Positions 5,159 through 20,936 of a stretch of 41,970 nt of DNA are shown here, one piece after another (position 1 is the first letter of the stretch; every line of letters starts with the position of its first letter). Made by a program: the position numbers and the translations under genes. The stretch comes from an uncultured bacterium. GTDB lineage: Bacteria > Planctomycetota > Phycisphaerae > Phycisphaerales > SM1A02. Where the stretch lies: the NCBI GenBank assembly GCA_903891095.1, contig CAITDI010000028.1, forward strand, positions 1 to 41,970, written 5' to 3'. Under the pieces are notes generated by a model that ran no database searches, was not told where the DNA came from, and saw only the letters and a program-made list of their open reading frames with translations.

Positions 5159-6493
5159 TCACCGATGCTTCCGCACCGCGCGCGTCGTGAGCGCGTTCGC
5201 CGCATCGGCACCCGCGCCCGTGAACCGCTCCGCCGCGGGATCCCAGTTGAGCGGCTTGCGAAGCTCGTAGCCGATGTTGCACAGCTGGCAGATCGTCGCG
5301 GTGCGGTGGCCCGTCTCGGCGGTGCAGATCGGGTCGCGCCCCTCGCGGATCGCCGCGAGGAAATCCGCGATGTGCGACGAGTTCCGCGGCAGCGCCTTCT
5401 CGTTGCCGCGCACGGGCTCGATGAACTTCGCGTCGTCGGCGGCCTTCGGGTCCTCGCCCTTGTACGAGCGGATGTGCCCGCGCGAGCACTCGATGGTGCC
5501 CTCGGTGCCGATGAACGTGCAGTCGGTCGGGCCGCCGTGGATCATCTCGACGCCGTTCGCGTAGACGAAGCGCAGGCCCGTCTTCGCGCCGTCCGCGGGC
5601 GGGATCACCGCGACCGGGCCCGACATGTCCATGCCGAGCGCCCACTGCGCGATGTCGAAGTGGTGCGCGCCCATGTCCGCGAGTCCGCCGTTGCAGTACT
5701 CGCGGTAGTTGCGCCACTTCGGGTAGTGGCCGTGCATGCCGATCGGGCAGAGCTCGTGGTTGAACGGGTGGAACGGCGCCTGCCCGAGCCAGCCGTCCCA
5801 GTCGATGTCGGCGGGGCAGGGCTCCTCGGGGAGATCGCACGGAATCGGCGACTCGCCGACGCCGATCGTGATGCGCTTGATGCGGCCGATGCGTCCGTTG
5901 CGCACGGCTTCGGCGGCGCGCACGAAGTTGTAGTCGAACTCCGAGCGCTGCTGCGAGCCGGTCTGGAAGCGGATCTGCGCCTTGCGCGCCGCGTCTGCGA
6001 TCGCGCGGCCCTCGCTGATCGTGAGCGAGAGCGGCTTCTCGCAGTAGACATGCTTGCCGGCCATCGCGGCGGCGATCGCAGGCTCGGCGTGCCAGTGGTC
6101 GGGCGTCGCGACGATCACCGCGTCGATCGCGGGGTTCGCGACGATGTCGCGCCAGCTCGCGACGACGGAGCAGACGTCCTTCTTGCGGCGCTCGTTGACG
6201 AGGCGCACGCCTTCCTTCGCGCGCGCGGCGGCGACGTCGGCGATCGAGACGATCTCGATCCCGTCGTCGTCGAGGAACCCGCCGTGGAGCTCGTGCGCGC
6301 GCTTGCCGAAGCCGATGATCGCGAGCTGCATGCGGTCGTTGGCCGCGGGCGTGCGCGTGACGGGCGCGGGCGAAGCTGCAGGCGTCGCGCGCGCAAGCGC
6401 CGGCGCCGCGCGGCCGAGCGCGGTCATGGCGACCGTCGAGACGGCAGCGGTGCGGACGAACGCGCGACGGGACGGCTCATGCGAGTGGTGCAT
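5159..6493 (-). CDS. Tat-exported Gfo/Idh/MocA-family oxidoreductase
   Basis: A 444-residue NAD(P)-dependent sugar or cyclitol oxidoreductase homologue. The N-terminus has a twin-arginine signal (SRRAFVRT, residues 8-15) and an Ala-rich hydrophobic stretch to about residue 35. A Rossmann fold follows (MQLAIIGFGKRA, 55-66). Family motifs are VIVATPDHWHAEP (127-139) and the catalytic-lysine motif EKP (152-154, CEKPLSLTISEGRAI). The C-terminal half fits the usual substrate domain (MGAHHFDIAQWALGMD). Tat export of a folded, cofactor-loaded enzyme fits planctomycete members of this family. It lies 51 nt downstream of the secreted gene at 6545-8590 on the same strand, so it may be read from the same transcript. 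The substrate is not predictable. Such enzymes can make 3-keto sugars, which matters given the DUF1080 gene at 21076. Confidence 0.9.
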   Translation of the reverse strand: MHHSHEPSRRAFVRTAAVSTVAMTALGRAAPALARATPAASPAPVTRTPAANDRMQLAIIGFGKRAHELHGGFLDDDGIEIVSIADVAAARAKEGVRLVNERRKKDVCSVVASWRDIVANPAIDAVIVATPDHWHAEPAIAAAMAGKHVYCEKPLSLTISEGRAIADAARKAQIRFQTGSQQRSEFDYNFVRAAEAVRNGRIGRIKRITIGVGESPIPCDLPEEPCPADIDWDGWLGQAPFHPFNHELCPIGMHGHYPKWRNYREYCNGGLADMGAHHFDIAQWALGMDMSGPVAVIPPADGAKTGLRFVYANGVEMIHGGPTDCTFIGTEGTIECSRGHIRSYKGEDPKAADDAKFIEPVRGNEKALPRNSSHIADFLAAIREGRDPICTAETGHRTATICQLCNIGYELRKPLNWDPAAERFTGAGADAANALTTRAVRKHR

Positions 6494-6544: not shown

Positions 6545-8590
6545 TTACGGCGACGACCAACTCCCGAGGACCAGCACGAGATCGCGCGGTCCCACCGTGC
6601 CGTCGCCGTCGAGGTCCTCGCGGGCGCCCGCCGTGCCCCACGCCGCGAGCAGGATCGCGAGGTCGCTCGGGCCGATCGCCCCGTTGCGGTCGAGGTCGCC
6701 AAAGCGCGCTGGATCGAGGTCGAACACATCGATCCGCGGCCGCGCGGCCGCTCCAGATGACCCGCGGTCGGACGCACCCACGATCAACTGGCCGCCCGCG
6801 AGCGCGAGCCCATCGCCGAAGGACCGCGAGGCCACGAGATCGCGCGCCAGGACATGCGCGCAGCGCCACGCGCCATCGGCGCCGCGACGGAAGACATAGG
6901 CGCGGTCGGTCTTGTCGCCGCCGACCGCGATCACATCGCCCTCCACGCTCACCGAGGCCCCGAAGTCGGTCGACGCGACCGAAAGCGCGAACGGCAGCAC
7001 GCGCTCCTCGGGCCGAAGCACGGCTTCCGGCGCGTACAGGCCATCGGCGCCGCGGCGGTAGACCACGACGCCGCCGATCCGGTGGGGTGATCCCGAATAC
7101 ATCATGCCCGAGCCCGCGACCATCACATCGCCGTCGAGCGCGAGCGATTCGCCGAAGCCTGGCACGCTGAAACCGTCGGGCGATGTGAGCTGCTGGACGA
7201 GCTCGAACGCGCCCGACTTCTGCTGTCGGTAGACGAACAGCGTCCGTCCGTCGCCGACGACGAGCACTCCGTCGCCAAGCGCGACCTGCACGCCGAACGG
7301 ATCCTCGCCATCCCGCTGGACAGACGCGATGGGCGCCCATCCCTTCGCGTCGCGTCGATAGAGCTCGGCGATGCCTTGGTACAGCGTGGGACTGATCGAC
7401 ACCTGCTTGACCGACGAGATGGCGAGCAGGTCTCCGCGCAGCGCGATGCCGCTCCCGAAGCCAGTGATCGCGCCGATGCTTCCGGGCTCCGGAACAAACT
7501 CGCGCACGAGCGGCCAGGTTCCGTCGGACGCGCGTTCGCAGACCCGAACGGCTGCATACGGGGCGCTGTTCCTGGCGACGCGCACGGCCGCCCGTTCGCC
7601 GCTGACCGCGATCCTGGCGCGGCCTATCGGCTGCGCGGTCGTCGCGACGCCGTCGATGCGGTCCTCTGCAATCCAGCGCACGACGCCGTTCGCGTCGGTC
7701 GTGCGGCGCAGCATGGCCGCAGTTCCATAGGCCGCGTATGAAGTGAGCCCGCCCACGATGGCGTAGTCGCCGTCAGCGCGGATCTCCGCGCCTATTCCGT
7801 ATCCGACGAAGAGCTCGGGCTGCGTGCAGTCGATGCGCTGCTCGAGCGCAAGCTCGCGGTCGAGGCAGTTCGCTGCGCCGTCGCCATCGCTGTCGGTGTC
7901 GGAGCTGCCGCAACCGCACTGGCCTGGCAGGATCTTGGCGGGATCATCCGGGCAGTCGTCGGCTGTTGGGCCGAGCGAGACTTCCACCGCGTGTACCTCG
8001 GCCACATACACGGGGCCGTACATCCACAACTTGAGCCGCGCGGTAAACGCGTCCTCGCGGCGCGTCACGAACTGCGCCAGGTGCACCCGTCCGCTTGCGT
8101 CGGGATAGCTCTGCGCCGGGTTCAAGGTTGCCCATGCAACGCCGGGCGTGCTTTCGCCATGGAAGGTCGGCTGTGCCGTGCCGAACTCCAGATTGGACCA
8201 GTTCGAGAAGAGGATCGATCCGGCCGCGGCGGCGCCCGCGTTTCCACCGCCAATCACATAGCTGTCGCCCGCCGACATGAGCGTCGAGCACTGGTAGGGA
8301 TTCCAGGTCCCGAGCGCGGTGCTGAGTGCGCCGCCCGTATCGAAGTCGCGGTGGTAGAACAGCGCCGAGCCGACGACGATGTTGAACTCGCTGACGAGCT
8401 GGACCCGCAGGGCTGGATTCGCGATGCGCGCGTACACGCGGTGGATCGCGACGGGCGTGCCGAGCACTTCGGTCGCGACGGACTCGACCTCGATGGTGGA
8501 GTAGTCGGCGCGTGCAGCGGGGGCGGGGGCCGAGGCGGCGAGGAGCGCGAGCATGACGAAGTTGGCGAAGCAGCACGGTTGCGTGAGCAT
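6545..8590 (-). CDS. Secreted FG-GAP-repeat protein with C-terminal type I dockerin-like domain
   Basis: A 681-residue exported protein. The ATG at 8590 gives a clean signal peptide (to about residue 27, ending PAARA); the frame stays open upstream but those residues are low-complexity shadow. Residues about 28-190 form the N-terminal domain shared with the next four upstream genes (FYHRDFDTGG, LGTWNP, GDSYVIGGG, VHLAQFV). A Cys/Asp-rich linker follows (about 213-247, LPGQCGCGSSDTDSDGDG). Residues about 255-620 carry FG-GAP-type repeats (FGSGIALRGDLLAIS, FGESLALDGDVMVAG, FGASVSVEGDVIAVGG), suggesting a beta-propeller. The last about 50 residues are a paired calcium-loop dockerin-like domain (DLDRNGAIGPSDLAILL, DLDGDGTVGPRDLVLVL). 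Likely a surface-bound or secreted binding protein; the ligand is unknown. Confidence 0.88.
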   Translation of the reverse strand: MLTQPCCFANFVMLALLAASAPAPAARADYSTIEVESVATEVLGTPVAIHRVYARIANPALRVQLVSEFNIVVGSALFYHRDFDTGGALSTALGTWNPYQCSTLMSAGDSYVIGGGNAGAAAAGSILFSNWSNLEFGTAQPTFHGESTPGVAWATLNPAQSYPDASGRVHLAQFVTRREDAFTARLKLWMYGPVYVAEVHAVEVSLGPTADDCPDDPAKILPGQCGCGSSDTDSDGDGAANCLDRELALEQRIDCTQPELFVGYGIGAEIRADGDYAIVGGLTSYAAYGTAAMLRRTTDANGVVRWIAEDRIDGVATTAQPIGRARIAVSGERAAVRVARNSAPYAAVRVCERASDGTWPLVREFVPEPGSIGAITGFGSGIALRGDLLAISSVKQVSISPTLYQGIAELYRRDAKGWAPIASVQRDGEDPFGVQVALGDGVLVVGDGRTLFVYRQQKSGAFELVQQLTSPDGFSVPGFGESLALDGDVMVAGSGMMYSGSPHRIGGVVVYRRGADGLYAPEAVLRPEERVLPFALSVASTDFGASVSVEGDVIAVGGDKTDRAYVFRRGADGAWRCAHVLARDLVASRSFGDGLALAGGQLIVGASDRGSSGAAARPRIDVFDLDPARFGDLDRNGAIGPSDLAILLAAWGTAGAREDLDGDGTVGPRDLVLVLGSWSSP

Positions 8591-8623
8591 CTTCGGGGTT
8601 CCGTGTTGGGGTGATCGAGCTTC

Positions 8624-8638
8624 CCGAGAGCGCGGGAC
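8624..8638. repeat. 15-bp sequence shared upstream of two FG-GAP genes (copy 1)
   Basis: CCGAGAGCGCGGGAC (plus strand) lies 33 nt before the start of the gene at 6545-8590 and recurs exactly at 10689-10703, upstream of the gene at 8655-10676. It could be a leftover of gene duplication or a shared regulatory site. Confidence 0.6.
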
Positions 8639-8654
8639 TCGAGGCCTCATCGCC

Positions 8655-10676
8655 TCAATCGTCGACGCCGTCGCCGTCCTTGTCGGGGTCGATGCAGTCA
8701 GGCAGGCCGTCGCCATCGCGGTCGGGATCCGCGACGCCGTCCCCGTCGCAGTCGGCAAGCGCGAGATTTTCGGCGACAAAGCTGCCGTCCGTGCGTGCGT
8801 TCCGCGGGCTGTACGCCGACACGAGCATCGGGCCGACGAACGCGATCGAGCTCGGCCGGACCGTGTAAGGGGTCGGCGTGGACTTCAACGTCGCGTGCGG
8901 GATCCACGTGCTGCCGCCGATGCGGCGGTAGACGTAGCTCTCCGCGCCATCCGCCACGCCAAACGCCAGGCGATCGCCGTCGAGGACGACATCCGCGAAG
9001 TAGTAACGGCGGCCGAGCAGCTGAGCGGTCCACTCGATTGGAACAATGCGGCCGACGTCCGCCCACAGTCCGTCCGCGCCGCGCTCGTAGAGCTCGACAC
9101 CCGAGGTCTCGAGCGGCGGCAGCGGAAGTCCCAGCGAATTGGGCACCGAAAGGCTGCCAGCCGCGACGGCGAGCGTGCGGGCGCTCATCGCGATTGAGGT
9201 ACCGAACCCGCTCGTCGTCGTGTTGCCCGTCGGATGGAGCAGCGTCTGGAGCGCACTCCAGTTGCCTCGCGCATCGCGCCGGTAGAGGTACACGGAGCCG
9301 GGATTGCCAGCGAGCGTTCCCGCCGCGCCGACGGCAAGGTCGTTGCCCCACGCCGCGATGCTCATGCCGAACCCGCGGTCGTTTTCGCCATCGGCGATCG
9401 GGTTCGTCACGTGCGCGCGCTCGGTCCAGAGTCCGTCGTTGTCGGTCTCGAGGATCGAGACGCTGCCCGTGCGCGGATACTCCGAGCGGTCGGCGGGATC
9501 CGAGACGATCACGCGACCCGCTGCGGCATCGATCCGTGTGCCGAAGCTCGAGCGCTGCGCGTTGTTCTGCCGCGGCGAGAGGATCGTCTCCTGCATGCGC
9601 CACTTCTTGAGCTTGGCGTCGAAGCGGAACACATAGACGGTACCGCGCGTGATCGTGCTGCCTGAGGTAACGCGTCGGGTGGGCGCGCCCACGAACAGCG
9701 CGTCGCCCACGAACTTGACCGCCGTGCCGAAGCCGTCGCGCCCCGCAAAGTCGGCGGGGAACTCGAGCGGCGCGGCGATCGCCTGCTCCTGCTTCCACCC
9801 GGTGCCGTCGCGCTTGAACAGCAGCACCGCGCCGCGCGCGTAGTCCGCGAGATACATCGACAGCGGCGCGCCGACGGCGATCCAGTCGCCTGCGGCGCTC
9901 ATCGATGCTCCGAAGTACACGGGATTGACCTTGTTCGCCGCAATCGGCGCGGGCATCGCGACCATGGTGGTCGCCGCATCCGCGCAGTCGTTCGTGCCGT
10001 CGAGATCGCTGTCGGTCTCAGGTTGGTCGCATCCGCACTGGCCCGGCGCGTTCTTGATCGAGTTCGGGCAGAGGTCCGGCGCGATCAGCACCGTGCCTCC
10101 CTTCGGAGCCCCTGGCGATACCAGCTGCACCTCGAAGTCCCACAGCGCCACGTCGTCGCGATTGGTCACGAACTGCGCGACCAGCACGCGCCCGAGCGCG
10201 TTCGGGCCGCCGCTGCTGGGATTGAGCGTGGTCCACGCGCAGTACGCGTTGATTCCGACCTTCATCGGAAAGTCGGCGCGGTTCAAGCCGTCAGGTCCCC
10301 AGCCCGCCGCCGCAACCGTCGGATTGCTGGAATTGACGGCGTTGCCGACGGAGACGAACGAGTCGAGCACGCCGCCCGCCATCGTGAGCGCGGGGCTCCA
10401 CGTGCCGACGGTCGTCGAGTACTCGCCGTCGGACATCAGGTCGTGATGATGGAACGTGGCGGATCCGCCGAGGAACGACGCTGACACCGTGAACACGCGG
10501 TCCGCGGGAGAGGAAACCAGTGCGTACACGCGCGTGACCCGCAGCGGAGCCCCGTTGATGTCGTCGGCGTTCGACGCCTCGGTCACGATGCCGGTGACAT
10601 CCGCGCACGCAACGGCCGAGCAGAGGAGGCTGGCGGCGAGAGCGGGGAGGGCGGCAAGGAGTGAACCTGTCTGCAT
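8655..10676 (-). CDS. Secreted FG-GAP-repeat protein ending in calcium-loop repeats
   Basis: A 673-residue exported protein, paralogous to its downstream neighbour. The ATG at 10676 gives a signal peptide (MQTGSLLAALPALAASLLC, cleavage near ACA-DVTG) with AGGA 9 nt upstream. Residues about 25-200 are the shared N-terminal domain (FHHHDLMSDGEY, GTWSPAL, LDSFVSVG, RVLVAQFVTNRDDV). A Cys/Asp linker (LCPNSIKNAPGQCGCDQPE) leads to at least five FG-GAP-type repeats (FGASMSAAGDWIAVGAP, FGTAVKFVGDALFVGAP, FGMSIAAWGNDLAVGAA). The C-terminus is DCDGDGVADPDRDGDGLPD and similar loops and then stops, with no dockerin, unlike its four relatives. The stop lies 64 nt before the next gene. Likely extracellular and calcium-dependent; the ligand is unknown. 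Confidence 0.87.
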   Translation of the reverse strand: MQTGSLLAALPALAASLLCSAVACADVTGIVTEASNADDINGAPLRVTRVYALVSSPADRVFTVSASFLGGSATFHHHDLMSDGEYSTTVGTWSPALTMAGGVLDSFVSVGNAVNSSNPTVAAAGWGPDGLNRADFPMKVGINAYCAWTTLNPSSGGPNALGRVLVAQFVTNRDDVALWDFEVQLVSPGAPKGGTVLIAPDLCPNSIKNAPGQCGCDQPETDSDLDGTNDCADAATTMVAMPAPIAANKVNPVYFGASMSAAGDWIAVGAPLSMYLADYARGAVLLFKRDGTGWKQEQAIAAPLEFPADFAGRDGFGTAVKFVGDALFVGAPTRRVTSGSTITRGTVYVFRFDAKLKKWRMQETILSPRQNNAQRSSFGTRIDAAAGRVIVSDPADRSEYPRTGSVSILETDNDGLWTERAHVTNPIADGENDRGFGMSIAAWGNDLAVGAAGTLAGNPGSVYLYRRDARGNWSALQTLLHPTGNTTTSGFGTSIAMSARTLAVAAGSLSVPNSLGLPLPPLETSGVELYERGADGLWADVGRIVPIEWTAQLLGRRYYFADVVLDGDRLAFGVADGAESYVYRRIGGSTWIPHATLKSTPTPYTVRPSSIAFVGPMLVSAYSPRNARTDGSFVAENLALADCDGDGVADPDRDGDGLPDCIDPDKDGDGVDD

Positions 10677-10688
10677 GGTGGTGTCCTG

Positions 10689-10703
10689 CCGAGAGCGCGG
10701 GAC
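10689..10703. repeat. 15-bp sequence shared upstream of two FG-GAP genes (copy 2)
   Basis: An exact copy of the 15-mer at 8624-8638, placed 12 nt before the start of the gene at 8655-10676. Confidence 0.6.
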
Positions 10704-10864
10704 ATGGAGATACGCAAAGCCAGTTCCGCGATCATCGCCGTCGCGACAAATTTGGACAAGAAAATCCAGGCGAGAGACTCCAGGCGAGAAACTCCCGCGA
10801 CTGCGACCTTCGCGATCCGTGCGCCGTGGGAATGTGCTTGGGGATCGCCCCTCGACCAAAGAAA

Positions 10865-10899
10865 CCGCCCCGCCCGGCCACAAGGACCAGACGGGGCGG
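10865..10899 (-). terminator. Probable Rho-independent terminator of the giant beta-helix gene
   Basis: CCGCCCCG (10865-10872) pairs with CGGGGCGG (10892-10899). Read on the minus strand the hairpin is followed by TTTCTTTGG. It lies about 54 nt after the stop codon at 10953, which suggests the giant gene ends its own transcript before the FG-GAP genes begin. Confidence 0.6.
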
Positions 10900-10952
10900 A
10901 AAGGGAACGAAAGGAAGCACCCGGGCGACCCGCGCCCGCTTCGCCGCGGCGA

Positions 10953-13900
10953 TCAGTGCGGATCGAAGTGCCCGAGCAGCAGCGCGAGGTCCGGCGCGCT
11001 GATCACGCCGTCTCCGTTGAGGTCGCCCGCCGGCGCGCCGACGGCGCCCCAGAAGTTGAGCAGGATGCCGAGGTCCGCGCCGTCGACATGGCCGTCGAGG
11101 TTCAGGTCGCCGCGCGCGAGCTCGCAGGAGTCGAGCTGGCCGTTGTGATTCTCGTCCGGGGTTCCCGCGGCGATCTCGTCGATGTCGCAGATGCCGTTGC
11201 CGTTGCAGTCATCGCCGAACACGTTGCCGGACTGGTCGTTGAACTGTCCGTAGATGTTCTCCGGCGTGTTGATGCAGAAGCGCGAGTAGCCAACCGCGCT
11301 GAAGCCCGTCGTCGCCGACCAAAGGCCGCCGCCGGCCGTGCCCGCCGAGTTGTGCTCGACGACGCACAGCGAGACCGAAAGTCGTCCCGTGTTGTAGAAG
11401 CCGCCGCCGGTGGTGCTCGCGTGGTTCGACGAGATGTCGCAGTTCGCGAAGCTCGCCGCGCTGTTGTCCACCGTCGCACCCGATACCGCCACGCCGCCGC
11501 CCTGCGCGGCCGAATTGCCACGGATCACGCAGTTGACGAAGTTCGGGCTGCTCGACGAGCAGGCCACACCGCCACCTGGGCCGGTCGCGGTGTTGCCTTC
11601 GATCACGCAGTCGCTGAAGTCAGGCGACGAAAGCAGCAGCCTGATGCCTGCGCCCGTGCTCGCCGATCCGTTGCGAATCGTGAAGCCTCGCATGATCACG
11701 CCATGCGGTGCGATGTTGGTCATCGACACGCAGCGTCCCGTGTGGTTGCCCTCGATGAAGGTCTCCGCCGCGCCGCTGAGCGACTCGATGGTGACCTTGC
11801 GGCCCGAGATGCTGATCGGCGACCACGTGCCCGCCGCGACCTTGATCGTCGTGCCGTTCGGAGCAGCGTTGATCGCCGCCTGGATCGACGCGAAGCCCGT
11901 TCCGCCGACGACGAACTCGCCCGCGCACTCGTCCGGACGACCGTTGCCGTTGAGGTCGGTCGACAGGCCGCTCGCGAGGTCGCAGTCGTCGGGGATGCCG
12001 TTGCCGTTGCAGTCGCTGTTGGTGCCCGATGCGATCTCGCAGTTGTCGGGGACGCCGTTGTGATTGCAGTCGGACTCGATGCCGTTGGCGATGTCGCAGG
12101 AATCGGGGATGCCGTTGTGGTTGCAGTCACCGACCGCGCCGGATGCGATCTCGCACGCGTCGATCGCGCCGTTGCCGTTGCAGTCGGCCGCGATCGCGGT
12201 GAGCGCCAGCGAGTGCGCGCCGCCTGCCGCAATCGATCCGATCGCACGAAGGCCATGCGGCACGTCCGTCTGACCGAACGCATCCCAGCCCCAGCCCACC
12301 ACGGTGCCGTCCGACTTGAGCGCAAGCGTGTGCTGGCCCGAGCCGGCTGCGATCTGGACGACCCCGTTCAGACCTGCGGGAACCGCAAGCTGACCGAAGA
12401 GGTTGGAGCCCCAGCAGAGGACGGTTCCGTTGGCACGCAGCGCGACCGTGTGGTAGCAGCCCGCGGCGATGTCGGTCACTGCTCCGACGTTCGCCGGGAC
12501 ATTGCACTGGTTGAAGTTGTTGAGACCCCAGCACAGCACCGAGCCGTTGGCGCGCAGCGCCACCGAGTGCGCTCCGCCGAGTGCGAGCCTCGTCGCCGGG
12601 CCAATCGTCGACGGCACAGTGCACTGACCTTCGTTGTTGCGACCCCAGAGCACGATGCTGCCATCGGTGTGGAGCACGCCGCTGTGGTTGGCGCCGGCCG
12701 CAAGCCGCAGCACGTTGCCGTTGGCGGCGGTGGGCACATTGGTCTGGCCGAAGGCGTTGGCGCCCCAGCCGACCACCTGTCCGTTGGTGCGCAACGCGAG
12801 GTTGTGGGTGCAGCCCGCCGCGATCTGGATGACCGAGTTCAGTCCGGCCGGAATCGTGACTTGGCCGAACGAGTCCGCGCCCCACACCGCGAGCGTGCCG
12901 TTGGCGCGCAGCGCGAGCGAGTGATCGCAGCCCGCCGAGATCGCGGCGATGTTGCCGAGGTTCGACGGGATGATCGTCTGCCCGCGCGAGCCGTCGCCCC
13001 AGGCGAAGGTCTCGCCGCGGAGCTGGCACGAATCGGGAATGCCGTCGCCGTTGCAGTCGGTTTCGGCGCCCGACGAGATGTCGTCTGCGTCGCAGATGCC
13101 GTTGCCGTTGCAGTCCTGGCTGAAGATGTTGTCTCCGTCGTCGGTGTACTCGCCCGAGATGTTCTCCGGCGTGTTGCGGCAGAGCCGCGTGCGCACCAGG
13201 TCGAACGACCCGCTGCCGCCGACGATCGCAAGACCGCCGCCGACTGCTGCGCTGTTGGCCTCGATGTCGCAGCTGTCGAACAGGACGCTCAGGACGCCCG
13301 TCGAATCCCACGCCACGGCGCCGCCCGAGTCGGTCGCCGAGTTGTGCGTCATCGTGCAGTTCATGAGCGCGCCTTCGGAGCCTGCGAGATGGACCGCGCC
13401 GCCGATGGGCGCCGCGTTGGCATCCATCGTGCAACCACGGATCTGCCAGCCGCCACCGAGCGAGAACTCAATGGCGCCGCCATCCAGCGTCGCGCTGTTG
13501 GAACGGAACGTGCAGTTCTGGATCAGCGATGTCGTGTCGAATCCGAAGATCGCGCCGCCGCGGTCCGCGTGGTTCGATTCGAACACGCAGTCGAGCACCG
13601 CCATCGCGGGCACCGAGATGATCGAGATCGCGCCGCCGACGCGGGCGCCTTCGAAGAGGTGCCCCGTGGTGCCGCTTCGGAAGGTGAATCCCTGGATCAC
13701 GCCGCCGCCGCCGCCAACGCCGTTGGATTCGATCGTGACGATCGAGTCCGGGAGCGTCTGAGATGCTCCGCTGCCGTCGAGGATCGTCACCGCTGCGCCG
13801 CCGATCGAGCGCATGCTCACGCCGTTGTTGGGCATGTGGATGAATCCGCGATGCGTGCCCGGTCCGACGAGGACCGTCGCGCCCTTGGGTGCTGCGTTCA

Positions 13901-16900
13901 TGGCCGCCTGGATGGTTCCGTAGCCCGAGCCGCCGACGACGAGCTCGCCGCTGCACTCGTCCAGTCGACCGTTGCCGTCGAGGTCGGTGGAGGTGCCGAG
14001 CGCGAGGTCGCAGCTGTCGGGCCGCGCGTTGCCATTGCAGTCGGTCGCGTAGCCGCTGGCGATATCGCAAGAGTCGGGGATCCCGTTGCCGTTGCAGTCG
14101 GCCGAGCCGCCCGATGCGATGTCGCAGCTGTCAGGCAGGCCGTTGCCGTTGCAGTCGAGCGCGACGCCGCTGTCGATCTCGCAGCGGTCGACGATGCCGT
14201 TCGAGTTGCAGTCCGAAGGCCCGTGGCTGCGCACCAGCGTGTGGGTTCCACCGGCGGAAATCTCGACGATGCCCACGGCCGTCGCGGGCACGTTGGTCTG
14301 GCCGAAGTTGTTCCAGCCCCAGGAAACGAGGGTTCCGTTCGAGCGGAGCGCCACCGTGTGCTGGCCCGATCCGGCGGCGATCTGAACGACATTGCTCAGG
14401 CCCGCGGGCACATCAAGCTGGCCGAAGATGTTCGAGCCCCAGCAGGTGACCGTGCCGTTGGTGCGCAGGCCGACCGAGTGGTAGCAGCCCGCGGCGATCT
14501 CCTTGAGCGTGCCCACGTTGCCCGGAACCGTGCACTGACCGAAGTTGTTGAGACCCCAGCAGCGGACGGTGCCGTCTGTGCGGAGCGCCATCGAATGCGC
14601 GCCGCCGAGCGCGATGCGCGCGACGGTGCCGACGTTGCTCGGCACGTTGCACTCGCCGCTGAGATTGCGGCCCCACATCACCATCGTGCCGTCGTTGCGG
14701 AGCACGCCCGTGTGGTTCGCGCCCGCGGCGACCTGCGCCACGCCCGTGAGTCCGGCCGGGACGTCGCACTGGTTGTAGGCGTTGTAGCCCCAGCAGCGGA
14801 CGGTGCCATCGCTGCGCAGCGCGATGTTGTGGTCGCAGCCGGCCGCGATCGCGTTCACCGCGTTGAGTCCGCTCGGGATGGTGATCTGGCCGAAGCTGTT
14901 CGAGCCCCAGCCCACCATGGTGTGGTCCGCCTTCAGCGCCAGCGAGTGGCTGCAGCCAGCGGCGATGTGCCACACATCTCCGATCGAAGAAGGAATCGAC
15001 GACTGCCCGTTGGTGTTGTCGCCCCACGAACGCATGTCGCCGATCAGCTGGCACGAGTCGGGCAGGCCGTTGTGGTCGCAGTCCGCTTCGGCACCGCTGG
15101 CGATTTCGTCTGCGTCGCAGACGCCGTTGCCGTTGCAGTCCTGGCTGAGGATGTTGTCGCCGATGTCCGCATACACCGTCGCGAGGTTCGTCGGCGTATT
15201 GAGGCAGAAGCGCGAGTGCGAGAGCGCGAGCTCAAGCTGGCCGTCGAGGCGGGTGAACGCCGCGTCCGACGCAGTGTTGTTCTCGAAGGTGCAGCCGTTC
15301 ACGATCAGGTTGACGCCGCCGAGCGCGCTCCATGCGATCGCGCCGCCCTTGCCGCCGGCGCTGTTGCCGGTGAAGTCGCTGTCGCGCAGCGAGACCGCAG
15401 CCGTGACCGCGCCCGCAGGCTGCACGATCTGCATCGCGCCGCCGTTGCCGACAGCGCTGTTGTTGGTGAGCAGGTTGTTGCGGAACGTCCACTTGCCGCC
15501 GAAGCCGAGCTCGACCGCGCCGGCTTCCACCGCAGCGGTGTTGTGGTCGAACAGGCAGTTCTCGATCGTGCCCGAGGAGGCGTAGCCGCAGAGCGCGCCG
15601 CCCACGTTCGAGTGGTTGTTGAGGAACTTGCAGTTGCGGACATCGGCCGCGACGCCGTTGAGGAAGATCGCGCCGCCCATGCGGGTCCCGTACGCGTCCG
15701 CGCCGATCTGACCGTCACGGAAGGTGAAGCCATCGATTGTCGTGCCGTTGGCCGCGCTGCCCGTGACCGAGATGATCGCCGTGCCGAGTCCTGCGCCCGA
15801 GATGATGGTCGTGTTCGGACCGGCGATCGAGACCAGGTGCACCGATTTGGATCCGATGTCGAACGGACCCGCGTAGTTGCCCGGCGCGATGTGGATCGTC
15901 GCGCCGTTGGGAGCCGCGTTGAGCGCAGCCTGGATGTTGGCAAAGCCGCTGCCGCCGACGATGTACTCGCCGCTGCAGTCGTCCAGCACGCCGTTGCCGT
16001 CGAGGTCGGTCGAGCTTCCGCTCGAGAGATCGCAGCTGTCGAGCCTGCCGTTCTGGTTGCAGTCGGTGCCGATGCCCGACGCGACATCGCACGAGTCGAT
16101 GCGGCCGTTGCCGTTGCAGTCGAACGCCACGCCGGTGCCGAGCTCGCAGCTGTCGAGCAGGCCATTGTTGTTGCAGTCGCTCGTCGCGGGCATGCCGTTG
16201 TAGTCGAGGGTGAGGCGGATGCCGCCGCCCGCGCACTGCGTCGGGCTGACGGTGCCGGATGCGGTGATGTTGACCGTGAGGCGGCCATCCGCGACCAGCG
16301 CGTTGAATGCGGCGAGCGTGAAGCTCTTGACCGCGACGTCCGGCGTGGCCGGGCAGTCGCTGCCGTCGTTCACGAAGAAGAGTTCCTGCGCGCTGCCGTC
16401 GAACGAGACGCCGATGAACTCGTTGGGCTGATCGAGGTCGGAGATCGCCTCGATCTTGATCGTCGGGCTGCCCGTGTAGGCGCGCGGCAGGTTGGTGAAC
16501 GAGTAGGTCGCGGGGTAACCGTTGCCGAACGGCGCCAAGTACTGCGTGACCGTGTGCACCACGACCGCGCCTTCGCACACATCGGGCACCGAGTCGCCGT
16601 CGCAGTCGAGCAGGGCACCCGACGCGATCTCGCAGACGTCGCCGATGCCGTTGGTGTTGCAGTCAGCCTGGGTGGGGTTGGCGATGGTGGGGCAGTTGTC
16701 GCCGTTCACGAGCGCATAGCCCGCGGGCTGCGTGCACTGGGTGAGCGTTCCGTTGGCGGCAACGCCGCGGCCGTCGCCGTCGGTGTCGCGGTACCAGATC
16801 GTGTTCGGGTTGAGCGCTGCGTTGTTGTCGTTGCAGTCGGTGTTCGAGCGCACGTACCCCGCGGGCTGGTTGCACTGCGTCAGCGTCGGGCCAACCGACG

Positions 16901-17765
16901 AGCCGAAGCCGTCGCCATCGCCGTCGCGGTACCACACCGTGTTCGGATTGATCGACGCGTCGTTGTCGTTGCAGTCGCTGTTGGTCGACACGTAGCCCGT
17001 GACGGGCGTACAGCTCACGACCGTGCCAGAGCTCGGCGCGCCGAATCCGTCGCCGTCGAGGTCGCGGTACAGCGTAGGGCAGCCTCCGCCGAGCCCCAAC
17101 GTAAATGATCCAGTACCAAACTGCACCGCGGAACCCGCGACGCCGTTGTTGTAGCCGACCTCGAGGTGGTAGGTGCGAGCGACCGAGTCGTTGGCCGAGA
17201 GCACGAACTGAGCGACGCGGACGTCGGTCGTCGGGACGCCTGGGGAGTTGCCGACGCGACCCTGGAGGGTCGGGGGCGACGAGTTGAACCAGCCAAGGAT
17301 GTCGTTGTTCGGCAGGTCGGGGCGGTTCCAACCAGCGGCGGTGGTGTTGCCGCCGGTGTTCCACGACGGGTCAGCCGTGGTCGCGTTGGTCGCAGCAGCC
17401 TGGCCACCGATGGTCAGGTACGAGTCGTACGGACGGTTGAGAGTGGCCGAGCCCGTGAGCGTGGGGCTCCAGGAGCCGCCCGACTGGGTGAGCACGCCGC
17501 TGCTGCCGGAGTCGTTGTCCTTGTGCCAGAAGCCGCTGAGCGCGCCAGCGCCGGAGCTCGAGCTAAGGTTGAAGCAGTTGAGGAGCGTGTCGGTCGCGCC
17601 GTTGAAGCGCGCTACGACGGTGTAGACAGTCAGATTCTGGCCGCTGTTCGTAACGTTCGTCGAAGTGACGAAAAAGCCCACGAACGCCCCACTCGCCGCC
17701 CCCGCGCACATACCGGCGCTCAGGGCTGCGATACCGAACTGCTTAAACATGGAACCGATCTGCAT
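10953..17765 (-). CDS. Giant secreted modular protein: MopE motifs, three beta-helices, two RCC1-like propellers, dockerin
   Basis: A 2270-residue exported protein. The ATG at 17765 gives a signal peptide to about residue 27 (cleavage near ASGA), with an AAAGAAG-type Shine-Dalgarno upstream. Approximate domains: shared N-terminal domain (28-225; FWHKDNDSG, RPYDSYLTIGG, WNRPDLPNND); three MopE-type motifs (PF11617, 228-382; YRDGDGDGFG, PAGYVRSNTDCND); a beta-sandwich-like region (400-525); then DCNGNG linkers, right-handed beta-helix and RCC1-like repeats in the order helix 596-870, RCC1 910-1182, helix 1273-1540, RCC1 1583-1859, helix 1949-2176; last, a dockerin-like pair (2218-2270; DLNLDGHVDGADLGILL). 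Each RCC1 block has seven WGxNxFGQ-type units, enough for a seven-bladed propeller. The beta-helix modules recur every 674 and 676 residues. Likely a surface or extracellular adhesin or polymer-binding protein; no catalytic motif is recognised. Confidence 0.9.
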   Translation of the reverse strand: MQIGSMFKQFGIAALSAGMCAGAASGAFVGFFVTSTNVTNSGQNLTVYTVVARFNGATDTLLNCFNLSSSSGAGALSGFWHKDNDSGSSGVLTQSGGSWSPTLTGSATLNRPYDSYLTIGGQAAATNATTADPSWNTGGNTTAAGWNRPDLPNNDILGWFNSSPPTLQGRVGNSPGVPTTDVRVAQFVLSANDSVARTYHLEVGYNNGVAGSAVQFGTGSFTLGLGGGCPTLYRDLDGDGFGAPSSGTVVSCTPVTGYVSTNSDCNDNDASINPNTVWYRDGDGDGFGSSVGPTLTQCNQPAGYVRSNTDCNDNNAALNPNTIWYRDTDGDGRGVAANGTLTQCTQPAGYALVNGDNCPTIANPTQADCNTNGIGDVCEIASGALLDCDGDSVPDVCEGAVVVHTVTQYLAPFGNGYPATYSFTNLPRAYTGSPTIKIEAISDLDQPNEFIGVSFDGSAQELFFVNDGSDCPATPDVAVKSFTLAAFNALVADGRLTVNITASGTVSPTQCAGGGIRLTLDYNGMPATSDCNNNGLLDSCELGTGVAFDCNGNGRIDSCDVASGIGTDCNQNGRLDSCDLSSGSSTDLDGNGVLDDCSGEYIVGGSGFANIQAALNAAPNGATIHIAPGNYAGPFDIGSKSVHLVSIAGPNTTIISGAGLGTAIISVTGSAANGTTIDGFTFRDGQIGADAYGTRMGGAIFLNGVAADVRNCKFLNNHSNVGGALCGYASSGTIENCLFDHNTAAVEAGAVELGFGGKWTFRNNLLTNNSAVGNGGAMQIVQPAGAVTAAVSLRDSDFTGNSAGGKGGAIAWSALGGVNLIVNGCTFENNTASDAAFTRLDGQLELALSHSRFCLNTPTNLATVYADIGDNILSQDCNGNGVCDADEIASGAEADCDHNGLPDSCQLIGDMRSWGDNTNGQSSIPSSIGDVWHIAAGCSHSLALKADHTMVGWGSNSFGQITIPSGLNAVNAIAAGCDHNIALRSDGTVRCWGYNAYNQCDVPAGLTGVAQVAAGANHTGVLRNDGTMVMWGRNLSGECNVPSNVGTVARIALGGAHSMALRTDGTVRCWGLNNFGQCTVPGNVGTLKEIAAGCYHSVGLRTNGTVTCWGSNIFGQLDVPAGLSNVVQIAAGSGQHTVALRSNGTLVSWGWNNFGQTNVPATAVGIVEISAGGTHTLVRSHGPSDCNSNGIVDRCEIDSGVALDCNGNGLPDSCDIASGGSADCNGNGIPDSCDIASGYATDCNGNARPDSCDLALGTSTDLDGNGRLDECSGELVVGGSGYGTIQAAMNAAPKGATVLVGPGTHRGFIHMPNNGVSMRSIGGAAVTILDGSGASQTLPDSIVTIESNGVGGGGGVIQGFTFRSGTTGHLFEGARVGGAISIISVPAMAVLDCVFESNHADRGGAIFGFDTTSLIQNCTFRSNSATLDGGAIEFSLGGGWQIRGCTMDANAAPIGGAVHLAGSEGALMNCTMTHNSATDSGGAVAWDSTGVLSVLFDSCDIEANSAAVGGGLAIVGGSGSFDLVRTRLCRNTPENISGEYTDDGDNIFSQDCNGNGICDADDISSGAETDCNGDGIPDSCQLRGETFAWGDGSRGQTIIPSNLGNIAAISAGCDHSLALRANGTLAVWGADSFGQVTIPAGLNSVIQIAAGCTHNLALRTNGQVVGWGANAFGQTNVPTAANGNVLRLAAGANHSGVLHTDGSIVLWGRNNEGQCTVPSTIGPATRLALGGAHSVALRANGSVLCWGLNNFNQCNVPANVGAVTDIAAGCYHTVALRANGTVLCWGSNLFGQLAVPAGLNGVVQIAAGSGQHTLALKSDGTVVGWGWDAFGQTDVPHGLRAIGSIAAGGAHSLALTAIAADCNGNGAIDACEIASGAVGDCNHNGIPDSCDIANGIESDCNHNGVPDNCEIASGTNSDCNGNGIPDDCDLASGLSTDLNGNGRPDECAGEFVVGGTGFASIQAAINAAPNGTTIKVAAGTWSPISISGRKVTIESLSGAAETFIEGNHTGRCVSMTNIAPHGVIMRGFTIRNGSASTGAGIRLLLSSPDFSDCVIEGNTATGPGGGVACSSSSPNFVNCVIRGNSAAQGGGVAVSGATVDNSAASFANCDISSNHASTTGGGFYNTGRLSVSLCVVEHNSAGTAGGGLWSATTGFSAVGYSRFCINTPENIYGQFNDQSGNVFGDDCNGNGICDIDEIAAGTPDENHNGQLDSCELARGDLNLDGHVDGADLGILLNFWGAVGAPAGDLNGDGVISAPDLALLLGHFDPH

Positions 17766-17860
17766 GTCGTGCTTCTTTCTCTGGCGCGCAGGCCGTTGCC
17801 TTCGCTGTTTCAAATGCCAACTGCACACACTTCGAAATCAATAGCGGTTTGCCGATCGCG

Positions 17861-19441
17861 TTACGGGAAGCTGCCCCAATGGCCCAAGAGCAACGCGAAG
17901 TCCGCGCCGTTCACCAAGCCATCGCGGTTCAGGTCTCCGATGATCGGGCTGGCGGAACTCGTGCCCCAGACGTTCAGCAGCAGCGGAACGTCCGACGAGT
18001 TCACGATGCCATCGAGGTTGAGGTCGCCGCGCGCGTACTCGCACACATCGCCGACCGTGTTGTAGTTGCTGTCCGCCTGATCGGCGTTGGCGATGCTGGG
18101 GCAGTTGTCGCCATTGATGCCCGAATAGCCCGTCGGCTGCGTGCACTGCCGCACGATGCCGTCCGCGGCAACGCCGCGTCCGTCGCCGTCGGCGTCTCGG
18201 TACCACGGGGTGTTCGGGTTGACCAAGGCGTTGCCGTCGTTGCAGTCGGTGGCCGACAGCACGTATCCGACGGGCTGTGCGCACTGCGTGATCGTCGCGC
18301 CGGTCGCAGCTCCGTAGCCGTCTCCGTCGGCGTCGCGGTGCCAGACCGTCGCCGGATTGATCGCGGCGTCGCCATCGTTGCAGTCGGTGTTCGAAAGCGC
18401 GAAGCCCGTTGGCTGCGTGCACTGCGTCGTCGTGCCGTTCACGCTCGATCCGTAGCCGTCGCCGTCGACGTCGCGGTACCAAACGGTGTTCGGGCTGATC
18501 GCGGGATTGCCGTCGTTGCAGTCGGTGTTGAGGCGCGAGTAGCCCGAGGGCTGGGTGCACTGGGTGATCGTCGCACCGCTCGTGCTGGCGCCGAAGCCAT
18601 CGCCGTCGATGTCGCGGAACCAGACCGTGTTCGGATTGATCGCAGCGTCGCTGTCGTTGCAGTCCAAGTTGTTGAGCACGTAGCCAGGGACTGCGCTGCA
18701 ATTGACGATGGCCAGGTTCGGATTTGGGTTGCCAAAGCCATCCCCGTCGCTGTCGAGGTAGAGCGTGGGGCAGGAGGGGCTTAGCGTGAAGCTGCTGACG
18801 GCCGTCTGCACGTTGCCGTACGCCCCGTTGGTGTAGATCACGTGCATGCGGAAGGTGCGGACCGTGTTGTCGCCGGTCGAGACCACGAACTGGCCGATGC
18901 GGATGTCGGTCGAAGGCAACCCGGGCGAACTCCCCTGGCCAACGGCTCCGTTGTTCGGGTAGTAGCCAATGAAGGTGTTGTTCGGCAGGTCAGGACGGTT
19001 CCAGCTCCGCGCATCGGCGTTGCCGCCGCTCGTCCACTCCGAGTCCGGCGAGATCGAGACGCTCGCGCTCGCCTCGGGACCGATCGTGAGATACGAGTCA
19101 AACGCGCGGTTGGCCGTGCTGCCGGTGCTGGCGGGGTCCCAGGTTCCGGAGCCTTGGGTGATGCCGCCGCCCGTGACGTTGTCGCGGTGGAAGAATCCGG
19201 TGAGCGCTGCATCTCCGCTGAGCGAGCGGAAATTGTCGCAATTCAGGATCGCATCGGTCGAACCATTGAAACGAGCGGCAACGGTATAGACGCGGAAAAA
19301 GCTCGTGTTGTAGCCGTCGGAAATCGAAACCACGTTGGATGTCACGACAAATGTCGTGAACGTCGCGCACGCCGAATACGTAGCCGCCGCCGCCAACGCC
19401 ACACCCGCCACGCACCGGTTCATCAAGCTCCAAGACGCCAT
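17861..19441 (-). CDS. Secreted protein with MopE-type metal-binding motifs and dockerin-like C-terminus
   Basis: A 526-residue exported protein. The start at 19441 has CGGAG 8 nt upstream and gives a signal peptide ending near YSACA. Residues about 27-215 are the shared N-terminal domain (FFHRDNVTGGG, GTWDPASTGS, FDSYLTIG, WNRPDLPNN, SPGLPSTDIRIGQFV). Five MopE-type repeats (PF11617, about 224-440) follow, each with D-x-D-G-D-G, a Cys, P-x-G-Y and DCND, then a thrombospondin-3-like NGDNCPSIANADQADSN. The C-terminal about 58 residues are a dockerin-like pair (DLNLDGIVNSSDVPLLLNVW and DLNRDGLVNGADFALLLGHW). It is essentially the N-terminal third of the giant neighbour plus its C-terminus, without beta-helix or RCC1 parts. 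Metal binding is likely; the function is unknown. Confidence 0.88.
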   Translation of the reverse strand: MASWSLMNRCVAGVALAAAATYSACATFTTFVVTSNVVSISDGYNTSFFRVYTVAARFNGSTDAILNCDNFRSLSGDAALTGFFHRDNVTGGGITQGSGTWDPASTGSTANRAFDSYLTIGPEASASVSISPDSEWTSGGNADARSWNRPDLPNNTFIGYYPNNGAVGQGSSPGLPSTDIRIGQFVVSTGDNTVRTFRMHVIYTNGAYGNVQTAVSSFTLSPSCPTLYLDSDGDGFGNPNPNLAIVNCSAVPGYVLNNLDCNDSDAAINPNTVWFRDIDGDGFGASTSGATITQCTQPSGYSRLNTDCNDGNPAISPNTVWYRDVDGDGYGSSVNGTTTQCTQPTGFALSNTDCNDGDAAINPATVWHRDADGDGYGAATGATITQCAQPVGYVLSATDCNDGNALVNPNTPWYRDADGDGRGVAADGIVRQCTQPTGYSGINGDNCPSIANADQADSNYNTVGDVCEYARGDLNLDGIVNSSDVPLLLNVWGTSSASPIIGDLNRDGLVNGADFALLLGHWGSFP

Positions 19442-19742
19442 GCTGATCTCCGTTCACAGCACGCTGTGCGGATAGCAGCAAACGCACGCGTTCCGCGCGT
19501 GCGCTCTCTCGCCATCAACAAAGCGTGACGTAGCACACCTCTGACATGCACGCGCCAGACGGACGCGTTCGCCGTGGATTATGCGCGAAACACCATGATG
19601 TCCCGCACGGAATTCTTGAAAAAAGAAGCATCCGCGTCGACACGAAGTGCGACGAGAAATCCAACGGTGCATGTAATTGCCAACGAACAAACACGTTGTG
19701 TCCGCGATCGCGTGATGAATTTCTTTGCGTGGTGGTCGCGGC
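19442..19742. other. AT-richer intergenic region with possible distal promoter
   Basis: About 300 bp between two minus-strand exported genes, clearly less GC-rich than its surroundings (for example GAATTCTTGAAAAAAGAAGC near 19611-19630). On the minus strand GGGACA and CATAAT (19578-19583) are spaced 15 nt apart, a weak promoter candidate giving a leader of roughly 130 nt before 19441. A 10-bp palindrome CGCGATCGCG lies at 19703-19712. I see no gene in it. Confidence 0.35.
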
Positions 19743-20936
19743 TTATCGCCGCTGAGCCGCGTTCTCAAACAGCAGCGTCAGATCCCTCACGCCCACGATC
19801 CCATCGCCGTTGAGATCGCCGATCGGCGAGCTCACCTCGCACCAGAACAGCATCAGGATCTCCGCGTCGCGCGCATCGATCGTGCCGTCGAGGTTCAGGT
19901 CGCCGCGCGCAAACTCGCAGGCATCGCCCACGCCGTCGCCGTTACTGTCGGCTTGATCGCGGTTTGCGATGCGCCCGCAGTTGTCGCTGCCGTCGCGCAG
20001 GTAGCCCGCGGGCTGCGTGCATGAAGTCCGCGTGCCCTCGCTGGCCGCGCCGAGTCCGTCGCGGTCGAGGTCGCGGTACCACTTGGTCTCCGGAGTCAGC
20101 GTCGCGTCGTGGTCGTCGCAGTCGAAGTTGTTGGCCACGAAACCCGCGGGAATCGGCCAAGCCGTGCTCACGCCCGACGCCGCCGCGCCGAACCCGTCGC
20201 CGTCGAGATCGCGGTAGCTCTCGTGCTCGCCCGCCGCGATCAGCGTGAACTTCGCCTCGCGCGAGCGGGTCTTGCCGCTTGCGGTGCGGTAGGTGACCTC
20301 GGCGCGAAACGCGTAGTCGGGATGCACGGGCGACAGCACGAACTGCGCGATCAGCACCTCGTCGAGCGCCATGCCCGGCGAGCCGCCGACGTGTCCCTGC
20401 TGGTTGGGAGGCGCGGCGTTGAACCACCCGAGCGAGCCGTTGCCGGGGAGATCGGGCCGGTTCCAGCCACGCTTGTCCGCGCCCGCGCCGAACGACCACG
20501 ACGGATCGCCGATGGTCGCGTTGCGCGGATCCGCCGCGCCGCCGATGGTCACGAACGAGTCGTACGGGCGATTCGCCTTGGCCGAGCCGGTGATCGCGGG
20601 GTTCCACGAGCCCGTCGTCTGCGAGAGCTCGCCGGGCGCGTCGTCGTTGACGTTGTCCTTGTGCCAGAACACCGCGACACTCGCAGGATCCAGCACCGCA
20701 AAGTTGCTCACGTTGATCAGCGAGTCGTCGGGATCGTCGAAATGCGCAGCCACGCGATACACCGCGAGGGTCTGCTCGCCGATCGTCACCGGTACTGCAT
20801 GCACGATGAAGTCGACGAAGTCCGCGCGCGCGAGCTGCGCTGCGCAGGCGACCGCGATGATTCCCGCGCTGCACGCGTGGAACTCGGAACGATTGCGTGC
20901 GTGCTTGCCGAAGTGATGCATGGACTTCATGAACAT
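19743..20936 (-). CDS. Secreted protein with MopE-type motifs and dockerin-like C-terminus
   Basis: A 397-residue exported protein. ATGs at 20936, 20930 and 20921 are all possible; none has a Shine-Dalgarno. The first is kept because a -10-like CATACT lies 11 nt upstream. The signal peptide is long (to about residue 40, cleavage near LARA-DFVDF). The shared N-terminal domain follows (FWHKDNVNDDAPGE, GSWNPAITGS, RPYDSFVTIGG, WNRPDLPGN, SPGMALDEVLIAQFV). Two MopE-type motifs (YRDLDGDGFGAAAS, YRDLDRDGLGAASE), a DNCGRIANRDQADSNGDG calcium loop and a dockerin-like pair (about 345-397) complete it. It is the most upstream member of the five-gene exported block and is divergent from the DUF1080 gene at 21076. 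Confidence 0.87.
   Translation of the reverse strand: MFMKSMHHFGKHARNRSEFHACSAGIIAVACAAQLARADFVDFIVHAVPVTIGEQTLAVYRVAAHFDDPDDSLINVSNFAVLDPASVAVFWHKDNVNDDAPGELSQTTGSWNPAITGSAKANRPYDSFVTIGGAADPRNATIGDPSWSFGAGADKRGWNRPDLPGNGSLGWFNAAPPNQQGHVGGSPGMALDEVLIAQFVLSPVHPDYAFRAEVTYRTASGKTRSREAKFTLIAAGEHESYRDLDGDGFGAAASGVSTAWPIPAGFVANNFDCDDHDATLTPETKWYRDLDRDGLGAASEGTRTSCTQPAGYLRDGSDNCGRIANRDQADSNGDGVGDACEFARGDLNLDGTIDARDAEILMLFWCEVSSPIGDLNGDGIVGVRDLTLLFENAAQRR

What the first reader, a model, noticed from the sequence alone, without database searches (positions are those of the whole stretch)
6545..20936. A shared, apparently uncharacterised N-terminal domain links five neighbouring exported proteins
The genes at 6545, 8655, 10953, 17861 and 19743 encode quite different C-terminal modules (FG-GAP, beta-helix/RCC1, MopE motifs), yet all begin after the signal peptide with the same roughly 170-200 residue domain. 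Recurrent landmarks in order: F(F/W/Y)H(R/K/H)D, GxW(N/S/D)P, (Y/F)DS(Y/F)xTIG, WNRPDLP(N/G)N (clear in three of five), SPG, and a closing (V/I)xxxQFVxxxxD. I know of no named family with this set. A constant N-terminal part with variable adhesive tails suggests surface attachment, a secretion route or polymer assembly.
Basis: partly seen in the sequence, partly recalled or inferred. Interest (0 to 1): 0.75.

Follow-up and report, generated by a model that had tools for sequence, protein, structure and literature searches.

The report
Shared surface domain, interchangeable protein tails
Five neighbouring exported proteins of an uncultured planctomycete-type bacterium really do share one unnamed domain, which related bacteria carry on many different tails and which appears to be copied between proteins like an interchangeable part; what it binds is unknown.

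Summary
All five minus-strand genes have, right after the signal peptide, the same 176-200 residue domain: one copy used as query finds the five among only 10 places in the 3.6 Mb genome, and the C/D/E-type profile matches the A/B pair at 98.7%. No Pfam or NCBIfam model covers it. AlphaFold gives a confident beta sandwich (pLDDT 91) without clear PDB relative.

It is nearly confined to one GTDB family: 84 of 181 genomes; among 350 genomes of the order only one weak match lies outside. It occurs on single-domain proteins with a PEP-CTERM-like end, on long-tailed proteins, many with dockerin-like ends, and on one FG-GAP orthologue group.

Two further findings. The domain seems to move between tail types inside genomes: window gene C and a PEP-type gene on another contig are 91% identical in domain DNA, about 40% outside. 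And the array sits at a fixed chromosomal site, occupied in 11 of 13 informative genomes of the genus.

Most likely a surface-display module with alternative C-terminal anchors; its molecular function is inferred, not shown.

The parts
7964..8509 (-). shared N-terminal domain of gene A
   Evidence: profile match; model mc265f8a9f7d4
6545..8590 (-). gene A: signal peptide, shared domain, FG-GAP_2 repeats, dockerin-like C-terminus (about 6569-6700, below Pfam cut-off); upstream in-frame ATGs at 8650 and 8716
10071..10604 (-). shared N-terminal domain of gene B
8655..10676 (-). gene B: signal peptide, shared domain, FG-GAP_2 repeats, Asp-rich end resembling TSP3 by eye; no dockerin match
17097..17690 (-). 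shared N-terminal domain of gene C (modelled, pLDDT 91)
10953..17765 (-). gene C (2270 aa): signal peptide, shared domain, RCC1 repeats, PMP/beta-helix-like stretches, dockerin at 10977-11111
18782..19366 (-). shared N-terminal domain of gene D
17861..19423 (-). gene D: signal peptide, shared domain, MopE-type repeats, dockerin at 17888-18028 (start may be 19441)
20241..20825 (-). shared N-terminal domain of gene E
19743..20921 (-). gene E: signal peptide, shared domain, short Asp-rich repeats, dockerin-like end below cut-off (start may be 20930 or 20936)
10865..10899 (-). 15-pair hairpin with T-rich tail after gene C, possible terminator (the scan as a whole found no more sites than shuffles)
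5159..6493 (-). conserved flank of the array: GFO/IDH/MocA oxidoreductase
22223..23812 (+). flanking ORF without Pfam match; ORFs with similar C-terminal ends lie beside the efflux gene in several relatives (by eye)
23840..24787 (+). conserved flank: cation efflux protein

Best explanation
The domain is an Ig-like beta-sandwich surface module. The proteins carry a Sec-type signal peptide (seen in sequence, export not tested). Many are then held at the cell surface or in the matrix by one of two C-terminal devices: an exosortase-processed PEP-CTERM-like tail (single-domain copies) or a dockerin that could dock on cohesin proteins of the 'planctosome' kind (long-tailed copies); both are inferred. 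The domain is the constant unit and is exchanged as a cassette between these proteins by recombination inside the genome (shown as a pattern; mechanism inferred). The function I think most likely is that all copies of one genome bind a common partner, probably each other in a coat or matrix, so that long tails (propellers, beta-helices, metal-binding repeats, FGE) are displayed in the same layer (inferred).
For: Domain right behind a hydrophobic leader in 91 of 91 testable copies (loose rule, no control). PEP-like ends on 55 of 113 rows and about 25 dockerin-like ends by a permissive pattern; strict Pfam Dockerin_1 in 15 of 48 long-tailed proteins. Exosortase: 2 matches in the own genome, 20 of 21 genomes searched. 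Cohesin-HYR protein with a dockerin-like end in the own genome. On the tree of 83 domains PEP and long-tailed copies need 14 changes, at least 6 forced by well-supported branches. For 7 of 24 long-tailed domains the nearest domain lies in the same genome, all 7 PEP-type; shuffled genome labels give 1.6 and 0.8 on average, maximum 7 and 4 in 1000. Window C against the PEP copy on C51: 91% DNA identity in the domain, 39% upstream, 45% downstream; 118-base identical run, reached in 4 of 20,000 shuffles.
Against: Function and localisation untested. PEP-CTERM models miss their cut-offs. Some copies show neither end: the FG-GAP orthologue group (15), two FGE fusions, two array proteins in G013 and G014. 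Tail type is strongly clustered on the tree (14 changes against 26.7 shuffled), so swaps are occasional; 17 of 24 long-tailed domains have their nearest relative in another genome, and two of the seven same-genome cases are only about 50% identical. One of eight mixed pairs shows no drop at the downstream edge. Neutral gene conversion would give the same pattern without any shared partner. The genome has 73 dockerin matches but two cohesin matches, so the docking partner is uncertain.
Confidence: 0.45

Rival explanations
1. The domain binds an external ligand (a glycan, algal or particle surface) and each tail adds a second function; there is no self-assembly. Recombination among copies is neutral.
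For: Foldseek and VIA top rows include adhesin domains of the MSCRAMM and Als type. Tails such as FG-GAP, RCC1, PMP and one C-type lectin are often found in adhesive proteins (recalled).
Against: Matches are weak (no Foldseek E at 0.001 or better; VIA Z under 8) and may reflect only a common sandwich. Nothing in the sequence points to a ligand.
Confidence: 0.3
2. The domain is a cohesin-like dockerin receptor: PEP-anchored single-domain copies capture dockerin-tailed proteins, and proteins with the domain in front and a dockerin behind could chain head to tail.
For: In the C-type model 14 of 50 listed VIA rows are cohesins, Z 4.3-5.5. The genome has 73 dockerin matches and 2 cohesin matches.
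Against: Profile comparison with 10 cohesins of the genus gives 0.2% probability. No Pfam cohesin hit in 38 members. The A-type model lists 4 cohesins among 50 rows. Genomes of the order have dockerins without a match to the domain (G037-G039).
Confidence: 0.08
3. An ordinary lineage-specific exported-protein family that expanded by duplication; similarity across tail types is only common descent.
For: A tandem PEP-type pair shares flanks as well as domain (G007: 76, 92, 77%). The FG-GAP orthologue group is one clade, and tail type is clustered on the tree.
Against: Between tail types the similarity mostly stops at the domain edges, and the closest domain is in the same genome more often than shuffles give.
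Confidence: 0.15

Closest known systems
PEP-CTERM / exosortase sorted surface proteins (PF07589, TIGR02595, PF09721)
   Same: Signal peptide, domain, then a short PxPG-hydrophobic-Arg tail; exosortase genes in the genome.
   Different: Model scores stay below the cut-offs, and the same domain also occurs on proteins without this tail, many of them dockerin-ended.
'Planctosome' of Nemodlikiaceae (CL500-3), PMC6461901 (passages read)
   Same: Lake Phycisphaerae with cohesin/dockerin proteins of non-cellulosomal use; the own genome has a cohesin-HYR protein with dockerin-like end, as in the proposed adaptor. That the window's genome belongs near this group is inferred from record titles of relatives.
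   Different: The passages read describe LTD, P-domains, TSP3, HYR and peptidases, not this N-domain; an LTD anchor was not found here (one ORF tested).
Ig-like adhesin domains (MSCRAMM ClfA/ACE, Candida Als)
   Same: Generic beta-sandwich similarity and probable surface context.
   Different: No sequence relation detected; a conserved loop-rich stretch of about 100 residues; similarity within the range of unrelated sandwiches.

Membership tests
Any named domain family (Pfam, NCBIfam) | significant profile match over the N-domain | tested here: not met
   38 members: nothing better than single-member hits at E 0.034 and 0.042; five full proteins
PEP-CTERM proteins | C-terminal motif above model cut-off (single-domain relatives) | tested here: not met
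   four proteins scanned: PF07589 16.8, 18.1 and 14.2 bits against 20.7, none listed for the fourth; TIGR02595 at most 14.1 against 16
PEP-CTERM proteins | exosortase in the genome | tested here: met
   2 matches in the own genome, 20 of 21 genomes
Dockerin type I proteins | PF00404 above cut-off at the C-terminus | tested here: met
   C 23.8 and D 29.4 bits against 22.9; A 15.2 and E 17.6 fall short; B none, so met for two of five
Cohesin (for the N-domain) | cohesin profile similarity | tested here: not met
   hhalign 0.2%; no PF00963 hit in 38 members
Cohesin (for the N-domain) | cohesin jelly-roll fold | tested here: inconclusive
   Z 4.3-5.5 among many unrelated sandwiches
Planctosome | adaptor with signal peptide, cohesin, HYR, dockerin | tested here: inconclusive
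   Cohesin and HYR matched; dockerin-like end read by eye only; signal peptide not checked
Planctosome | LTD, P-domain, TSP3, cohesin anchor | tested here: inconclusive
   2011-aa ORF with a cohesin stretch gave no Pfam match at E 0.01 and is open at the contig end
Planctosome | window dockerins bind a cohesin | not testable with these tools
   needs a binding assay

The most novel reading that the evidence does not exclude
A tail-swapping display system. Single-domain PEP-type copies build a surface coat, and a fixed chromosomal site between an oxidoreductase and a cation-efflux gene holds a changing array of long-tailed proteins that enter the coat through the same domain. Recombination among copies keeps the domain matched to the coat of its own strain while the displayed tails turn over.
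Probability: 0.2. Interest if true: 0.75.

Novelty: new variant of a known kind. Interest (0 to 1): 0.5.

Why it matters
Planctomycetes encode many very large exported proteins whose display logic is poorly known (recalled). A constant domain that occurs on two kinds of C-terminal end, and that seems to move as a unit at the DNA level, gives a handle: it defines a new domain family with precise edges, links PEP-CTERM-like and dockerin proteins of one genome, and points to a chromosomal site where tails change between species.

Tried and rejected
Cohesin identity of the N-domain: suggested by the dockerin tails and by VIA rows, rejected at sequence level. Viral origin: 54 pattern matches in viral contigs, none confirmed (one scan); BFVD fold search without match at E 0.001. 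PDB by profile: four antibody-type hits at E 0.4 or worse. Close fold relative: none seen; that a family is not listed by VIA does not exclude it. Promoter and terminator scan: no promoter-like site, and terminator-like sites not above shuffles. Assembly chimera as the cause of the C/C51 similarity: unlikely, since the copies differ at 55 of 594 positions and both genes lie inside contigs, but not excluded without reads. Literature: listings only for PEP-CTERM, exosortase, dockerin, planctosome and CL500-3 terms (long lists were seen only in part); no title or abstract start described such a domain, but an unnamed domain cannot be searched by name. Two papers were opened, for passages only: PMC6461901 and PMC12078418, whose PEP-CTERM mention is in the reference list. 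Scripts that failed: and in part. The last hhalign line is mislabelled 'reversed' and repeats the forward comparison, so no reversed control was run.
Full report
Observation. The five genes lie on the minus strand between a GFO/IDH/MocA oxidoreductase (5159-6493) and a plus-strand pair ending with a cation-efflux gene (23840-24787). Each begins with a signal-peptide-like leader and then the same domain. Pairwise BLASTP links C, D and E at 38-51% identity and A with B at 35%, and links the two sets weakly (E-values from a set of five sequences). Stronger tests: domain D alone, searched over the six frames of the 3.6 Mb genome, finds ten places, all five window copies among them. A profile of 36 domains without A and B matches the A/B pair at 98.7% probability, E 3e-16, over 154 columns.

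What it is not. Neither the five proteins nor 38 domain copies have a meaningful Pfam or NCBIfam match over the domain. The 38-row profile finds nothing in PDB sequences (best E 0.4).

Fold. AlphaFold2 on 38 homologues gives the C domain a mean pLDDT of 91.3 and pTM 0.90. Six long strands (3-15, 18-29, 35-44, 156-165, 173-181, 190-197) frame a loop-rich region that holds most of the invariant residues. The A domain, with 27 rows that are mostly shared with that alignment, gives pLDDT 79.7 and the same order of strands. Foldseek has no PDB match at E 0.001 or better. VIA's best rows are Z 6.3 for C and 6.5 for A, to a BBSome beta domain, with adhesin, cohesin and other sandwiches close behind. 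By the tool's own note, Z under 8 may be only a common arrangement, so I call it an Ig-like sandwich without assigned relative.

Copies in the own genome. The profile gives 14 matches. Counted as genes these are 12: five in the window, three on C51, two on C37 (one split by a frameshift into two matches), one on C44, and one on C112, whose two matches are mirror images (1990 of 1990 compared bases identical). The C51 copies, the intact C37 copy and the C112 copy are single-domain proteins ending in PAPGA(L/V)ALLGLAGLAGRRRR-like tails. These resemble PEP-CTERM, but the four copies scanned (C51 three, C37 one) score below the PF07589 and TIGR02595 cut-offs. The genome has two exosortase matches.

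Range. With the first nine-row profile: 27 of 61 relatives, among them all 16 genomes of the own genus, own included; 4 of 294 genomes of the phylum sample, two of them of the own genus, one weak match in the order and one weak match with an internal stop in another family. With the 38-row profile: 84 of 181 genomes and 26 of 45 genera of the family; 70 of 350 of the order sample, only G058 outside the family, E 4e-5; 18 of 397 of the class sample, again only G058 outside. In the large searches only the best 8-18 candidates per genome were scored, so distant copies may be missed. The 22 named loci found by scan come from MAGs titled as planctomycetes, as uncultured bacteria, or with unlikely labels. 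Some of their contigs have the same length as contigs of the genus (32,716, 37,353 and 12,615 bases), from which I infer that the genus includes the Lake Erken and 'ZH' isolates. One scan of viral contigs gave none.

Architectures. I took 113 ORFs with the domain from fetched regions (80 regions, plus the window and L016; L011 and L080 dropped as duplicates; 17 matches, mostly short or weak, were not fetched). By end pattern: 55 PEP-like, 26 dockerin-like, 14 of an FG-GAP orthologue group, 11 cut by a contig or region end, 4 other, 2 FGE-sulfatase, 1 TSP3-like. One dockerin-like row (L122) belongs to the orthologue group by tail length and ending, so 25 and 15 is the better count. The pattern is permissive. 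Pfam on 48 of the 49 long-tailed proteins (a frameshifted piece left out): FG-GAP_3 15, Dockerin_1 15, PMP 8, W_rich_C 7, RCC1 5, FG-GAP_2 5, MopE 3, FGE 2, and single cases of P-domain, C-type lectin and TIG. The leader precedes the domain directly in 91 of 91 copies that could be tested by a loose hydrophobicity rule without control.

The domain moves between tails. A tree of 83 domains from the genus (short search, SH-aLRT only) keeps the 14 FG-GAP orthologues as one clade, but needs 14 changes between PEP-type and long-tailed copies, at least 6 on well-supported branches. The label is nevertheless clustered (shuffled mean 26.7). For 24 long-tailed domains the nearest neighbour (orthologue group left out) is in the same genome 7 times, always PEP-type; shuffles give 1.6 and 0.8 on average, maximum 7 and 4 in 1000. 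Five of the seven are 72-89% identical, two (window D, one in G005) about 50%; the other 17 have their nearest neighbour in another genome. The clearest case is window C and the first C51 gene: 91% DNA identity over the 594-base domain against 39% in the 90 bases before and 45% in the 90 after. Differences are uneven: a 118-base identical run, reached in 4 of 20,000 shuffles (which include the mismatches crowded at the domain edges), ends in such a cluster. Seven further mixed pairs, picked from the tree, have 60-81% in the domain; in six of them both flanks are lower (43-63%), in one (G005) the downstream flank is not (60 against 64%, 53 columns). Of two PEP-type pairs, one shares both flanks (76, 92, 77%) and one the downstream flank (60, 81, 82%). 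Gene conversion or another cassette-like exchange is the natural reading; which process acts is not shown.

A fixed site. The oxidoreductase was found in 12 of 16 genomes of the genus (E 1e-100) and the efflux protein in 15 of 16 (E 1e-60), and 18 regions were read. Both flanks on one contig: own genome five domain genes, G003 two, G001 and G011 one each, G005 and G007 none. One flank with a domain gene next to it: G002, G006, G009, G010, G013, G014, and G008 (fragment at a contig end). Not counted: G012 and G015 (contigs broken near the flank) and G004, where the efflux flank is present, the oxidoreductase was not found, and no domain gene lies in the 4.5 kb read beyond the flanking ORF; counted as empty it would make 11 of 14 instead of 11 of 13. 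No complete array gene seen ends in a PEP-like tail; most end dockerin-like, window B and one gene each of G013 and G014 do not. The second G003 gene (426 aa) is, as the map hides it behind an overlap. In G008, G013 and G014 the contig breaks inside the domain, as expected for a repeated sequence.

Context. The own genome has 73 dockerin matches at E 0.001 (150 of 248 candidates scored) and two cohesin matches. One cohesin protein also has an HYR domain and a dockerin-like end, like the adaptor of the hypothetical 'planctosome' of lake Phycisphaerae in PMC6461901 (passages read). The window proteins with dockerins could be cargo of such a system; the passages read do not mention this N-domain.

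Mechanism. Shown: shared domain, leader position, two kinds of C-terminal end, exchange pattern, fixed site. Inferred: export, anchoring by exosortase or cohesin, and a common partner for all copies of a genome. I judge coat or matrix co-assembly somewhat likelier than independent ligand binding, because exchange between differently anchored proteins is easy to understand if the domain must fit its siblings; neutral conversion cannot be excluded. The cohesin-like reading is attractive but fails the sequence test.

Verdict. A real, unnamed, lineage-bound domain family with a notable pattern of exchange and a conserved genomic site. It is a new variant within the known kind of modular surface proteins; function open.

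Noticed in passing
   Followed up: partly
L082 3596-4460 (own genome, C37): A single-domain paralogue is split over two overlapping frames; a frameshift, real or a sequencing error.
   Followed up: no
L078 614-2599 and 14 further loci (for example L087, L094, L141): An orthologue group joins the domain to a tail of nearly constant length (308-315 residues) with FG-GAP_3 repeats and no dockerin or PEP end seen; 14 of them form one well-supported clade.
   Followed up: partly
L085 and L092: Proteins with the domain end in an FGE-sulfatase (sulfatase-modifying factor) type sequence; Pfam finds this domain in two members, an unusual partner for a surface module.
   Followed up: no
G481:C144 and G482:C9: ORFs of 748 and 785 aa in another genus of the family each give two matches to the domain, so they may carry it twice.
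   Followed up: no
L190 2786-4375: Own-genome cohesin-HYR protein with dockerin-like end, a candidate planctosome adaptor; 8 of the 12 other genomes of the genus searched have cohesin matches.
   Followed up: partly
L191 and L192 (G005, G007): Array-free versions of the locus: both flanks on one contig with no domain gene between them.
   Followed up: partly
L055, L059, L061: Public records titled Candidatus Kuenenia stuttgartiensis and Verrucomicrobiales carry this domain; the labels are probably wrong.
   Followed up: no
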